A stretch of 64,000 bases of DNA, from assembly GCA_031265845.1 (NCBI GenBank), contig JAISCC010000061.1, positions 1 to 64,000 on the forward strand, read 5' to 3'. Of this stretch, positions 20,149 through 46,460 are shown in pieces. A program made the translations under genes and the position numbers. Within the stretch, counting starts at the first letter, position 1, and each line of letters opens with the position of its first letter. The notes beneath the pieces are model-generated. The model saw only the letters and a list, made by a program, of their open reading frames with translations, made no database searches and had not been told where the DNA came from. Source of the DNA: Treponema sp. (GTDB taxonomy: Bacteria; Spirochaetota; Spirochaetia; Treponematales; Breznakiellaceae).

Positions 20149-20276
20149 TGGAAAACGGGAGATAATTGTCTCTGCGTCACTCACGCCAGCGGTGGCGCAA
20201 TACCGCAATGCCGTTGGCGAAACGTCCTCGCGCCTTACCAGAAACAAGCGCCGCGAATGGGAGTCCGTGCGCCAAG

Positions 20277-20393
20277 CGCGAACCTTTGGTTCGACTGTAA
20301 GAAAATTTATCATCTGTGGGGTCGCCGCCATTTTTTGCTGGCATCGCTGATTCGAACCATCGCAGAGCGCCCGAAGCGGCGGAGTATTAAACC
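20277..20393 (+). repeat. Dispersed repeat, copy A (diverged)
   Basis: Shares the blocks AACCTTTGGTTCGACTGTAA, CGCCGCCATTTTTTG and a following GGC..CGC..TAACC-like block with better copies at 29442-29642 and 46247-46460. It lies between the murJ promoter and the broken pglZ, so it marks the left edge of the defence island. The rest of the 20149-20429 interval shows no gene. Confidence 0.55.
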
Positions 20394-20429
20394 CATAAGC
20401 GTATAGTTAACAAAGCGTTAAAAACGTGA

Positions 20430-21359
20430 CACGCGCTTAACGGCACATTCTTGTTTTGGCTGGACGCTCTCGGCGTTGAGTACCTAGCGTATATTTCAAA
20501 ATTGGCGTACGAGCGCGAACTGTCTATCTCTGTAAATATCGCCCGCGCGGAATTGCCGACGACAACCGCAATGAACCGCAACTTTTTCGATGAATGGACG
20601 GGGGCAAAGAATGGCGATAATGGAGATAAAAGACTTGATGAAATAAAGCACAAAGATACAGGCGGGTATAACTTCACAAAGAACGAGTCGCCTATCTACC
20701 TCGCCGGGGAACTGGATATAATCGCTGATGTCATAGACAGGGCCGCCACTGAACTTGCTTCGCGTCATTATAAACGCTTCTTGATTGCAAGCGACCACGG
20801 GGCTTCGCGGCTTGCCGTCTTGCGTCGTAAAGAGGAGCGGTATCCGGCAGAGACGCAGGGGGAACATTCAGGGCGTTGTTGCAAGAAGTTCGATCCCCAT
20901 GATTTGCCTTTTGCCGTTGATGAGAACGGTTATCTAGCGCTTGCCGATTATGGCAGATTTAAAGGAGGCCGCGCCGCTAATGTAGAGGCGCATGGAGGGG
21001 CGTCGCTTGAGGAAGTCGTTATTCCGATTATTGAACTCACGCTGAAAAACAGCAATGTAACGGTTGATCTGGTGGAAGACAGCGTAACGGTTGACTCCCG
21101 AAACGGAACTGTGGCAACCCTTTTTGCGAATGCTCCTCTGAATAATGTGTCACTCGTGTTGAATGGGAAGCGGCATTCGGCTTCACCAATTGACAAAAAC
21201 CATTACAAAGTCACCTTGCCTGACATAAGACGGGCGGGCGAATACCCTGCGGATGTTTACGCGGGAGACGACTTAATTGGCGAAGTCCTGATTAAGACGC
21301 AAGGCAAGAGCGGTAAAATTGATGACGGTTTCGACAGCCATTTTAAGAAGAATCTTTAA
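20430..21359 (+). pseudogene. pglZ: BREX alkaline-phosphatase protein PglZ, 5'-truncated
   Basis: About 309 codons remain of a protein usually well over 700 aa. The frame opens after a stop at 20427-20429 and joins the family at FWLDALGVEYLAYI, whose Asp is the first metal ligand of the alkaline-phosphatase core. A second ligand motif (IASDHGASRLAV) and the PglZ-typical EAHGGASLEEVVIPIIEL are intact, then a C-terminal beta domain. The whole N-terminal half and the brxP and brxC genes expected upstream are missing. A TTG at 20451 could start a short protein, but I judge the gene broken. TAATG links it to brxL. Confidence 0.8.
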
Positions 21360-22858
21360 TGATAGATAAACTCAGGAATTGTTTTGATGAAATGGTCGTT
21401 TATAAAGACCTAAAAAAAAGCAACTTTTTCTCCGCGCTGAGTCTGCCATCCTTTATGCGCGACTGGCTTTTGAAAAAGTTTGAAGACGAAAACGGCCGCT
21501 TTGACTCCGATGAATTGTTGCGTTTTGTGCGTACGTATTTGCCGCGCAAAGACGATTGGACAGCGATAAAAAATCAAGTGATAATCGAACACGAACGGGT
21601 CAAATTTCTTGCCAAGGTCTCTGTAGACATTGATATCAAAACAGGCGGAGTGTCATTCGCCTTGCCTGATTTCGGGTTGACAAGCAAAGACACGATTATT
21701 GAGGATTCTGTTTGGCAGACCTGCAAAGATGATTTGGTGCGCGGACGGGAAACTTGGGGAATAATCGAAATTGGCTATCGTCCGTCAGATAACTTCAATA
21801 CAGAAAAATCCAAAGAAGCCAACAGAGGAAAAATAAAACTCACGGCTTTCAACACCTTCTGTCCCTATACAATTGATATCGAATACTACAAAAACGCCCG
21901 TAATGAATTCAGTGCGTCTGAATGGCTGGATGTCTTGTTGGGAGCGATAGACTACAATGCGAACGGATATTCGCTGACAACAAGCGCCCCTAACGATTAT
22001 ATTAACAAAGTGGATCCGGAAGAAAAAAAACTCACCATGCTGACCCGTTTGCTGTCCTTTGTAGAAAAACGTCTGAATCTCATAGAACTTGCGCCAAAAG
22101 GAACCGGCAAGTCTTACCTGTTTGGTCGTGTAAGCCGTTTCGGCTGGTTGTCAAGCGGTGGTAGTATGAGCAGGGCGAAAATGTTCTATGACCAAAATAA
22201 ACGCGCAGTAGGATTAGTGTCAGGGAATGATTTCATAACCCTTGATGAAGTGCAGACTATTTCCTTCACCGATATAGATGAAATGAGGGCCGCATTGAAG
22301 GGCTACCTGGAATCAGGCATATTCACCGTTGGAAACTACGAAGGAGCCGCCGACGCCGGTGTTGTTCTCTGCGGCAATATAAAAAAAGAAACAATGGACT
22401 CCGATGGTTATAGCAACATGTTCAAAGAGTTGCCTTCTGTGTTCCACGAATCGGCATTGATTGAACGTTTTCACGGTTTCATTAAAGGCTGGAATATACC
22501 CCGAATGAACGACGACCTTAAAATTGCTGGTTGGGCGTTGAATTCGGAGTATTTTTGTTCGATGCTCCATGAACTTCGTGAAGATATGAGTTACCGCGCT
22601 GTGGTTGACGAACTCATTGAAGTTCCGGAAGCGGCGGACACCCGGGATACCGAAGCGGTTAAACGCATCTCGACAGCCTATCTTAAGCTGTTGTTCCCCA
22701 ATGTGCGCAGTCCCGGTGACATTGCTTCCCGGGAGTTCAAACGGTATTGTCTTGACAGGGCCCGTAAGATGCGGGATACGATTAAATACCAGCTTGGTGA
22801 ACTTGACGAAGAATATAGAGGCAAAAATATGCCAGTATTTGGCGTCAGACCGGATTAA
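21359..22858 (+). CDS. brxL: BREX AAA+ protein BrxL (short form)
   Basis: 499 aa. Walker A LAPKGTGKSYLF near residue 246 and Walker B FITLDEVQTI mark an AAA+ ATPase, and ESALIERFHGFIKGWNIPRM is the BrxL-family arginine-finger region. The N-terminal domain would bind DNA. There is no C-terminal Lon-type peptidase domain with its Ser-Lys dyad, so this is the short BrxL class rather than the roughly 680-aa form. BrxL follows pglZ in BREX types 1 and 4. Frame intact, start overlapping the pglZ stop by one base. Confidence 0.88.
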   Translation: MIDKLRNCFDEMVVYKDLKKSNFFSALSLPSFMRDWLLKKFEDENGRFDSDELLRFVRTYLPRKDDWTAIKNQVIIEHERVKFLAKVSVDIDIKTGGVSFALPDFGLTSKDTIIEDSVWQTCKDDLVRGRETWGIIEIGYRPSDNFNTEKSKEANRGKIKLTAFNTFCPYTIDIEYYKNARNEFSASEWLDVLLGAIDYNANGYSLTTSAPNDYINKVDPEEKKLTMLTRLLSFVEKRLNLIELAPKGTGKSYLFGRVSRFGWLSSGGSMSRAKMFYDQNKRAVGLVSGNDFITLDEVQTISFTDIDEMRAALKGYLESGIFTVGNYEGAADAGVVLCGNIKKETMDSDGYSNMFKELPSVFHESALIERFHGFIKGWNIPRMNDDLKIAGWALNSEYFCSMLHELREDMSYRAVVDELIEVPEAADTRDTEAVKRISTAYLKLLFPNVRSPGDIASREFKRYCLDRARKMRDTIKYQLGELDEEYRGKNMPVFGVRPD

Positions 22859-22868
22859 GAGAGACAGG

Positions 22869-23078
22869 ATGACTAAAAGCGCAGAAAAGAAAAAATGTTA
22901 CGTTTGCGGAAAAGAACAATTGAGCAAAAATGAAATCGGCCTGACAAGAAAACTGTTTGATAGAGACGCCAAACGTTTCTATTGTCTTGATTGTCTCGCG
23001 GACTACCTGGAAGTGGACGGCGGATTCCTATTGGCAAAGATTGAAGAGTTCAAAGAAGAAGGTTGCATCCTGTTTTAA
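22869..23078 (+). CDS. Small Cys4 zinc-ribbon-like protein
   Basis: 69 aa: KKCYVCGKEQ and RFYCLDCL supply two CxxC pairs, with an acidic helical C-terminus (AKIEEFKEEG). The spacing would suit a zinc or iron-sulfur site. It begins at ATG 22869, 10 nt after brxL, with an AGACAGG-type site; a longer in-frame extension is just brxL read out of frame. It ends 18 nt before the cysteine desulfurase. Position suggests a sulfur-handling adaptor or carrier, but nothing in the sequence proves this. Confidence 0.75.
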   Translation: MTKSAEKKKCYVCGKEQLSKNEIGLTRKLFDRDAKRFYCLDCLADYLEVDGGFLLAKIEEFKEEGCILF

Positions 23079-23096
23079 GAGAAAGGAGAACGGAAC

Positions 23097-24242
23097 GTGA
23101 TATACGCCGACAATGCGGCTACAACAAGGCTATCCGAGGCGGCTTTTGAAAAGATGCTTCCCTTTTTGCGGGAGCAATATGGCAATGCCTCAAGCCGGTA
23201 TACTTTTGGGGTTAAAGCAAAGCGAGTCATTGAGGAAGCCCGCCGTCAAGTTGCTGTGGCTATCGGCGCGGAGCCTTCTGAAATTGCATTTACATCAGGC
23301 GGCTCTGAAGGAAACAGTTGGGTGATTCAGGGTATCGCCCGGTTGTTTAATGGCGAGAATATTCATGTAGTCGCCTCTTCCATAGAACATCACTCCGTTT
23401 TGAACGCTTGCCGCAAAATTGAAACATGTGGCGTTTCGGTAACGTACGTGCCTGTGGATAGTGTGGGGCGTATTTCTGTTCGGGATGTAGCGTCCTCAAT
23501 AAGGCCGAATACGAAACTCGTGTCGGTTATGTTTGCGAACAATGAAATAGGGACAATTCAGCCGATAGCAGAGATTGGAAAATACCTGCGGGAAAAGGAT
23601 GTCCTTTTTCACACAGACGCGGTACAGGCCGTCGGCCATATCCCCGTGAATGTAAAAGATTTGCAATTGGACTTTTTAACCGCTTCCGCGCATAAATTCA
23701 ACGGAGCGAAAGGGACGGGTTTTTTATATAAGCGTTCAGGCATAGACCTTCCCCAATTGATTTTTGGCGGCGAACAGGAACACGGGCAACGGGCTGGAAC
23801 GGAGAATGTGGCTGGGATAACCGCAATGGGATATGCGCTCGAAGAGAGCGTCGCTGATATGTCTTTGATTAGTGAAAAACTAACCGCTCTTGCTGAGACA
23901 AGCATTAATGGACTGAAAGCTGAAATCCCCGAAATCAGAATCAACGGACAAGGGGCGGAAAGGCTGCCCGGCATTGTCAATATCACTTTTCCTTACGCGT
24001 CAGGAGAGGCGGTTATGCGCCTGCTGGATTTGAAAGAGGTTTGTGTATCTACAAGTTCTGCATGCAATTCCGGTAAAGACGAAGCCTCGCATGTTCTACT
24101 GGCGTTGGGACTATCTGAGAAACAAGCAAAATCATCAATCCGCATCTCATACGGAAGATATAATGCTATGGAGGAAGCGGAGAGAATTGTTTCGACGGTT
24201 TCAGATGTATATGCAAAAATTATAGCGAATCACAACTACTAA
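23097..24242 (+). CDS. Cysteine desulfurase (NifS/IscS/DndA family)
   Basis: 381 aa PLP enzyme that takes sulfur from cysteine as an enzyme-bound persulfide. Seen: YADNAATTRLSE at the N-terminus, SSIEHHSVLNA, the PLP lysine in TASAHKFNGAKGTG, and the active-site Cys in STSSACNSGKDEASHVL. GTG 23097 follows AAGGAG by about 9 nt. In DNA phosphorothioation systems this enzyme is DndA, supplying a DndC/BrxP-type protein; co-linearity with brxL favours that here over iron-sulfur assembly, because no iscU follows. The IS relic begins at the very next base after the stop, so the native 3' end may be altered. Confidence 0.9.
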   Translation: MIYADNAATTRLSEAAFEKMLPFLREQYGNASSRYTFGVKAKRVIEEARRQVAVAIGAEPSEIAFTSGGSEGNSWVIQGIARLFNGENIHVVASSIEHHSVLNACRKIETCGVSVTYVPVDSVGRISVRDVASSIRPNTKLVSVMFANNEIGTIQPIAEIGKYLREKDVLFHTDAVQAVGHIPVNVKDLQLDFLTASAHKFNGAKGTGFLYKRSGIDLPQLIFGGEQEHGQRAGTENVAGITAMGYALEESVADMSLISEKLTALAETSINGLKAEIPEIRINGQGAERLPGIVNITFPYASGEAVMRLLDLKEVCVSTSSACNSGKDEASHVLLALGLSEKQAKSSIRISYGRYNAMEEAERIVSTVSDVYAKIIANHNY

Positions 24243-24707
24243 TGGCTTGTCCCTAAATACTAAACGCCTTACGGAAGGCGATGAAGGCGCGCGCGGGCAT
24301 AAGCAAGACAAGGCGCGAACTCTCCAATCTCTGAAAGCGAGCCGGTATTTTGCGAAAACGATTCATCCGCGAGCGAGCGGATTCCACTATCCGTCGGCGC
24401 GCCTTGCGCTCAGAGGCGCGCCGCTTTTCCATTTTTTCCTGCCCGCGGCTCTTGATATGAGGGATGAACCCGCATAAAACAACAAGCTCTAGGTCCGGCC
24501 CCCCGCTATAGTCTTTGTCAAGGCGCAAACGCCGAGGAGTTTCAACACTGTCAGTCCGTTCAATCTGAAAAGAATCCGGCGCCGCTTCAAGCTGGGATAC
24601 ATCGCGGCGGTTGGCCTCGGTTGCCACCGGCGCCGTCCATCAGAAGACGCCGTTTGCCCCCTGGTTTCATATCGGAACCCAGGGGAAATCTATTTAGGGA
24701 TAAACCC
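24243..24707. mobile_element. IS5-family relic with terminal inverted repeats
   Basis: 465 bp. Left end TGGCTTGTCCCTAAATA (24243-24259) and right end TATTTAGGGATAAACCC (24691-24707) are inverted repeats matching at 14 of 17 positions. The inside carries only the transposase C-terminus, so the element is internally deleted and cannot move by itself. I could not identify a clean target-site duplication. Confidence 0.7.
24253..24627 (-). pseudogene. IS5-family transposase, C-terminal remnant
   Basis: About 124 codons. LDKDYSGGPDLELVVLCGF, then a P-H-I-K-S-R-G stretch, and RRIVESARSRMNRFRKIP mirror the DDE-transposase C-terminus where the last catalytic Glu sits in a V-E-R/S context before a W/R-MNRFR stretch. 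It ends AFIAFRKAF as these proteins do. The N-terminal two catalytic residues are absent. Confidence 0.65.
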
Positions 24708-24711
24708 TTAA

Positions 24712-29441: not shown

Positions 29442-29642
29442 CCCCGCCTTTCAGGGCGGGGCGTCTTGCAAGCTTCGCATTATTTACGAGGTTCGGCGAA
29501 CCTTCGGTTTGCGATCCTTTGGGTCGACTGTAAGGAAATTATGTAACTGTCCTGCCGCCATTTTTTGTTGGCGTCGCCAACTCTAACCGCCCTAAATGTC
29601 CGCTCTTTTGGGCGCGGTATGAGACCCCGCTGTGAATAACAG
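29442..29642 (+). repeat. Dispersed repeat, copy B, with IS605-like end hairpin
   Basis: Opens with CCCCGCC-TTTCAG-GGCGGGG (29442-29461), a hairpin of the kind seen at right ends of IS200/IS605 elements, then GCGTCTTGCAAGC, the AACCTTCGGTT unit, GTCGACTGTAAGGAAAT, GCCGCCATTTTTTGTTGGCG, CAACTCTAACCGC and GGGCGCGGTATGAGAC. Copy C (46247-46460) matches it closely. It ends a few bases before the ribosome site of the beta-barrel gene at 29657. The preceding 29163-29441 holds no gene. Confidence 0.75.
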
Positions 29643-46246: not shown

Positions 46247-46460
46247 ATCCTTCAGGACGGAGCGTCTTGCAAGCGTTGCATTATGGACGAGGTTCGGCGA
46301 ACCTTCGGTTTGCGAACCTTCGGTTCGACTGTAAGGAAATCAGTTAACTGTGAAGGTTTGCTATGCAAACCAGCCTGCCGCCATTTTTTGTTGGCGACGT
46401 CAACTCTAACCGCTCTAAAGGGTCGTCCTTTAGGGCGCGGTATGAGACTCCACTGCGAAT
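46247..46460 (+). repeat. Dispersed repeat, copy C
   Basis: Begins 28 nt after the RAYT stop. It shares GCGTCTTGCAAGC, GACGAGGTTCGGCGAACC, TTCGACTGTAAGGAAAT, GCCGCCATTTTTTGTTGGCG, CAACTCTAACCGC and GGGCGCGGTATGAGAC with copy B. The initial hairpin is decayed. Compared with B it carries a 23-nt insert containing GGTTTGC-TAT-GCAAACC. A ribosome-site-like GGAGG follows at 46470-46474. Confidence 0.75.

What the first reader, a model, noticed from the sequence alone, without database searches (positions are those of the whole stretch)
20430..24242. Remnant of a sulfur-linked BREX system: truncated pglZ, brxL, Cys4 protein and cysteine desulfurase in one transcript
The four genes are tightly packed (one-base overlap, 10-nt and 18-nt gaps). 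BREX type 4 is known as brxP-brxC-pglZ-brxL, with BrxP a PAPS-reductase relative of DndC. A cysteine desulfurase and a small Cys4 protein immediately after brxL suggest a module in which sulfur modification and BREX are physically joined, rather than merely co-occurring. The left half is lost, but the right half has intact frames.
Basis: partly seen in the sequence, partly recalled or inferred. Interest (0 to 1): 0.72.

Follow-up and report, generated by a model that had tools for sequence, protein, structure and literature searches.

The report
Broken remnant of type-4 BREX operon
This is the right-hand half of a known phage-defence operon (type-4 BREX, which puts sulfur into the DNA backbone), cut off in the middle of its pglZ gene; the sulfur-enzyme gene at its end is a normal part of such operons and was already reported in 2026, so the find is ordinary apart from one small helper protein that also turns up beside sugar-enzyme genes.

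Summary
Window 20443-24242 encodes the last ~300 residues of a type-4 BREX PglZ, an intact BrxL, a 69-residue cysteine protein and a cysteine desulfurase, spaced exactly as reported. The first ~450 residues of pglZ and everything left of it are missing, and no BrxP or BrxC was found elsewhere in the bin. Among 37 brxL relatives, 36 have Cys4 (the other is cut by its contig end), 22 of 35 have an intact adjacent desulfurase, and 17 carry all seven genes. The desulfurases form one clade apart from IscS, NifS, SspA and the host's own NifS-like enzyme. [quoted passage not shown] Two additions: Cys4 follows brxL with or without a desulfurase, and in Clostridia its distant relatives sit beside GH27 alpha-galactosidase genes, so Cys4 is not sulfur-specific. 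The break abuts a dispersed repeat in a metagenome bin, so deletion and misassembly cannot be fully separated; the surviving frames show no decay.

The parts
20278..20434 (+). dispersed intergenic repeat that abuts the break in pglZ
   Evidence: 18 further matches in the same genome; copies align to 20278-20358, 20324-20395 and 20368-20434
20443..21359 (+). C-terminal ~300 residues of type-4 BREX pglZ (phosphatase-like core plus DUF7862); N-terminal ~450 residues missing; only an internal TTG as possible start
   Evidence: NF033445 positions 488-740; alignment with intact PglZ
21359..22858 (+). brxL, 499 aa, intact, Walker A motif present
   Evidence: TIGR02688 above cut-off; PADLOC BrxL 733.7 bits; up to 89% identity to L062
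22869..23078 (+). Cys4: 69-aa protein, CxxC...CxxC...G-C-x-L-F, HTH-like C-terminal half
   Evidence: alignment A1 of 36, AlphaFold2 mean pLDDT 85.8
23097..24242 (+). cysteine desulfurase, BREX-type clade, intact
   Evidence: Aminotran_5; tree

Best explanation
The locus is the 3' half of a type-4 (phosphorothioate) BREX operon whose 5' half, comprising the first gene, brxP, brxC and the first ~450 codons of pglZ, has been removed at a dispersed repeat between murJ and tRNA-Leu. In intact relatives the seven genes form one operon. There the desulfurase would take sulfur from cysteine and pass it to BrxP (a PAPS-reductase relative), which with BrxC and a DNA-binding partner puts it into the DNA backbone; PglZ and BrxL act against unmodified phage DNA. 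The small zinc/HTH-like protein behind brxL most likely binds DNA or regulates the operon. Shown here: gene order, truncation, relatives and the desulfurase clade. Inferred from families and papers: sulfur transfer, modification, restriction and the role of the small protein. The window copy cannot modify DNA by itself and is most likely a recently broken, non-functional remnant.
For: Intact seven-gene operons in L010, L011, L014, L016, L019, L021, L026, L030, L044 and others. BrxP and BrxC in L012 identified by PADLOC at 904 and 2384 bits and BrxP by Pfam PAPS_reduct. Only the C-terminal part of PglZ is found in the bin; BrxC and BrxP queries find nothing in it. The break abuts a dispersed repeat. 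In same-genus genomes the matches run through pheT and murJ to about 20165-20176 (20293 in one), and separately resume at about 25049 just before tRNA-Leu; the stretch between is not shared. BREX desulfurases form one clade, support 100/98. [quoted passage not shown]
Against: All four frames are open and keep nearly all residues that are invariant elsewhere: 0 of 37 (PglZ), 1 of 148 (BrxL), 0 of 8 (Cys4) and 0 of 51 (desulfurase) are changed, which is unusual for an old remnant. BrxL has changed about 2-3 times faster than its nearest relatives, but an intact control did so too, so this is inconclusive. The genome is a 171-contig assembly of 94% completeness, so a join made by the assembler at the repeat is possible. 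The empty BrxC/BrxP searches had no positive control in the same run.
Confidence: 0.77

Rival explanations
1. Assembly artefact: the species carries a complete type-4 BREX operon, and the assembler or binner joined its right half to the murJ region at a dispersed repeat, leaving the left half outside the bin.
For: The break lies exactly at the end of a repeat with many copies; the frames show no decay; the assembly has 171 contigs.
Against: No BrxC, BrxP or PglZ N-terminal sequence anywhere in the 94%-complete assembly. The DNA upstream of murJ differs among the relatives, so real rearrangement here is common.
Confidence: 0.17
2. The truncated module (phosphatase half of PglZ, BrxL, Cys4, desulfurase) is kept by selection with a reduced function of its own.
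For: All residues invariant in relatives but one are kept across about 1,250 codons; the surviving piece of PglZ starts right at the phosphatase core.
Against: No ATG or convincing ribosome site for the start of the pglZ piece, only a TTG inside its first strand; no promoter-like site near 20443, and the promoter count overall is at chance; no other locus with this truncated set was met in the relatives examined.
Confidence: 0.05
3. Chance neighbours: the desulfurase and Cys4 belong to iron-sulfur assembly and merely lie next to brxL.
For: PADLOC DndA/SspA scores cannot tell them apart: E. coli IscS scores 617 bits against 442 for the window protein. The BREX clade is nearest to a clostridial NifS in the tree.
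Against: Cys4 directly behind brxL in 36 of 37 relatives and a desulfurase behind that in 22 of 35, across many phyla; BREX desulfurases form one clade; the genome has its own NifS-like enzyme elsewhere, on contig C41.
Confidence: 0.01

Closest known systems
Type-4 BREX with cysteine desulfurase and small zinc-finger protein (PMC12839542, Nucleic Acids Res. 2026)
   Same: PglZ-4, BrxL, small cysteine protein and desulfurase in one operon; intact relatives have BrxP and BrxC as described
   Different: The window copy has lost the 5' half. In the relatives collected here the small protein accompanies brxL even without a desulfurase.
Ssp system (sspABCD)
   Same: A desulfurase gene in an operon with a DUF4007 gene, an ATPase gene and a PAPS-reductase-type gene (e.g. 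L159)
   Different: The SspA-like protein is a distant branch in the tree; gene order and partners differ; no PglZ or BrxL.
Dnd system (dndABCDE)
   Same: Desulfurase feeding a PAPS-reductase-like enzyme for DNA sulfur modification (from papers)
   Different: Window desulfurase scores 331 bits against the NCBIfam DndA cut-off of 480 and is less similar to the solved dndA protein 3vax (195 bits) than to solved E. coli-type IscS 1p3w (260 bits).

Membership tests
Type-4 BREX | PglZ of the BREX-4 family | tested here: met
   NF033445 over cut-off, but only positions 488-740 of 741
Type-4 BREX | BrxL downstream of pglZ | tested here: met
   TIGR02688 over cut-off, one-base overlap
Type-4 BREX | BrxP (PAPS-reductase) and BrxC upstream of pglZ | tested here: not met
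   Absent at the locus and not found in the assembly; present in intact relatives. The window is a remnant, not a working member.
Type-4 BREX | DUF4007/SspB-like component | tested here: inconclusive
   PF13182 finds nothing in the assembly, but it matched none of the controls either and did not match the first gene of intact L012
Type-4 BREX | Phosphorothioate in host DNA and phage exclusion | not testable with these tools
   needs mass spectrometry and phage assays
BREX-associated cysteine desulfurase | groups with desulfurases of intact type-4 BREX, apart from IscS, NifS and SspA | tested here: met
   one clade, 100/98, after leaving out six long-branched or distant rows; with them included the group was not cleanly single
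DndA | NCBIfam equivalog cut-off | tested here: not met
   331 bits against 480
IscS/NifS housekeeping desulfurase | equivalog cut-off or grouping with IscS/NifS | tested here: not met
   NifS 439 against 531 and IscS 336 against 643; separate clade

The most novel reading that the evidence does not exclude
The small five-cysteine protein is a near-universal component of this type-4 BREX clade that works with BrxL rather than with sulfur supply, and belongs to a family of zinc/HTH-like partner proteins that also serve GH27 alpha-galactosidase genes in Clostridia, possibly as co-encoded regulators sensing metal or thiol state through the C-terminal G-C-x-L-F tail.
Probability: 0.25. Interest if true: 0.45.

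Novelty: already known. Interest (0 to 1): 0.22.

Why it matters
It confirms independently, from a separately drawn set of genomes, that type-4 BREX operons often carry their own dedicated desulfurase, and shows that in this clade the desulfurase, not the small Cys protein, is the optional part. That bears on how these systems obtain sulfur when the gene is lost (housekeeping IscS/NifS). The window copy itself matters little, because it is broken.

Tried and rejected
Frameshifted or scattered left half: no further PglZ sequence upstream in the three forward frames, and the assembly holds no BrxC, BrxP or PglZ N-terminus. Calling the desulfurase DndA from PADLOC: rejected, because E. coli IscS scores higher on the same models. 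A first desulfurase tree with long-branched outliers was unclear and was rebuilt without them. Decay test by residues invariant in relatives: no decay; relative-rate test: inconclusive because a control varies as much. DNA and protein searches of plasmids for the locus and for Cys4 found nothing. Fold search with the Cys4 model gave only weak HTH-like matches, E above 1, and no related solved sequence. No Fe-S assembly partner was recognised in the short stretch around the host's own NifS-like gene on C41, read by eye only.

Full report
The observation. pglZ ends at 21359 with a one-base overlap to brxL (21359-22858), then 10 nt to a 69-codon frame (22869-23078), then 18 nt to a desulfurase (23097-24242). 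Family searches name them type-4 BREX PglZ (C-terminal part only), BrxL, no family, and a class-V aminotransferase of the cysteine desulfurase kind. Alignment with seven intact PglZ proteins shows homology starting at the motif TFLFWLDALGVEYL, about base 20443; the first ~450 residues are absent. What remains is the phosphatase-like core and the DUF7862 tail. The only start codon near the beginning is a TTG inside the first conserved strand, with no convincing ribosome site, so the piece is probably not made as a proper protein (inference from the sequence).

The break. Bases 20278-20434, immediately left of the pglZ homology, are a dispersed repeat with 18 other matches in the same genome. 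Compared with same-genus genomes, the window matches through pheT and murJ up to about 20165-20176 (20293 in one), and again from about 25049 (tRNA-Leu and the citramalate-synthase-like gene); the stretch between is not shared. What lies upstream of murJ differs among the relatives (chemotaxis-type genes in two, other genes in the rest), and tRNA-Leu is preceded by a response-regulator gene in three of them. The site is therefore rearrangement-prone. BrxC and BrxP queries from an intact relative find nothing in the assembly, and the PglZ model finds only this piece. The assembly has 171 contigs and 94% completeness, so an assembly join at the repeat stays possible.

Intact relatives. A scan of the species-genome collection with BrxL gave 37 loci at 64-86% identity in Bacillota, Spirochaetota, Synergistota, Chloroflexota, Planctomycetota, Myxococcota, an archaeon (Methanoregula) and others. 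Eight more have the first six genes and no desulfurase; many of the other loci are cut by contig ends. Cys4 is present in 36 of 37 (the other, L046, is cut by the contig end). An intact adjacent desulfurase is present in 22 of the 35 that could be judged. A scan of 393 genomes of the host phylum with the Cys4 alignment, not selected for BREX, found 6 carriers, all with brxL and a desulfurase beside Cys4. In L012 the BrxP and BrxC genes were checked against PADLOC and Pfam; the first gene got no family name here, and its SspB/DUF4007 identity rests on PMC12839542. The BrxL-based set covers one clade of type-4 BREX, so the figures need not hold for all type-4 systems.

The desulfurase. PADLOC's DndA and SspA models do not discriminate: E. 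coli IscS scores 617 bits and the host's own NifS-like protein about 447, against 442 for the window protein. NCBIfam puts it below the cut-offs of DndA, NifS and IscS alike. In a maximum-likelihood tree without long-branched outliers, all 27 BREX desulfurases form one clade (100/98) apart from IscS, two NifS, an SspA-like protein from an ssp-like operon (L159) and the host's own enzyme; with the outliers included the picture was less clean.

The Cys4 protein. Thirty-six sequences share five invariant cysteines: C-x2-C, C-x2-C and a C-terminal G-C-x-x-F. AlphaFold2 gives three helices with the two CxxC loops close to them (mean pLDDT 85.8); fold matches are weak and HTH-like, which fits the published remark that the small zinc-finger protein resembles HTH regulators. 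In 22 BREX genomes 26 of 27 copies lie behind brxL, the other being a copy that lacks the first CxxC. In 391 genomes of the Clostridia class, 6 copies lie behind brxL with a desulfurase; of the remaining 17, 15 lie directly behind or within two genes of a GH27 alpha-galactosidase gene and 2 lie at contig ends (GH27 checked by Pfam for three, the rest read by their MGWNSWNTF start). Two human-gut contigs deposited as phage show the same pairing. The protein is therefore tied to brxL in BREX but is not a sulfur-specific part.

State of the remnant. All residues invariant in the relatives but one are kept in the four reading frames. Rates of change are somewhat raised in BrxL, but an intact control behaves likewise. 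The loss is therefore recent, or not real. Because BrxP is gone, the window genes cannot install phosphorothioates by themselves; this step is inference from the families.

What is known. The joining of a desulfurase to type-4 BREX, and its frequent company of a small zinc-finger protein, were reported in January 2026 (PMC12839542: 255 of 457 taxa). Type-4 BREX as a phosphorothioation system is cited from Yuan et al. 2024 through PMC11931770 and PMC12707154; that paper itself was not held. The present results agree and add the Cys4 distribution.

Noticed in passing
L110-L115, L117-L119, L121-L124, L126, L127; L054:9047-9247; L055:4788-4991: In Clostridia, relatives of the BREX Cys4 protein (same CxxC, CxxC and C-terminal G-C-x-x-F pattern) lie next to a GH27 alpha-galactosidase gene in all 15 non-BREX copies that could be judged; no reason for this pairing is known to me.
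   Followed up: partly
window 20278-20434, 29511-29588, 46312-46340: A dispersed intergenic repeat (about GCGAACCTTTGGTTCGACTGTAAGGAAATT, then CGCCCCAAGGGGCGGGGTATTAAACCCA) with many copies in this genome.
   Followed up: partly
L012:11713-12020: In Desulfotruncus arcticus the desulfurase behind an intact type-4 BREX is itself a frameshifted fragment, showing that this gene can be lost while the rest stays intact.
   Followed up: no
L067 (G006, same genus as the window): A same-genus genome holds a much more divergent type-4-like operon (BrxP part, BrxC, PglZ, BrxL, Cys4); no desulfurase was found before the contig end.
   Followed up: no
L158:3001-4940: Treponema saccharophilum plasmid pTS2 carries a desulfurase-family gene directly before a viperin-family antiviral gene.
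   Followed up: no
window 24240-24259 and 24691-24710: A 20-nt inverted repeat (85% complementary) 431 nt apart, directly after the desulfurase stop codon; possibly an insertion remnant.
   Followed up: no
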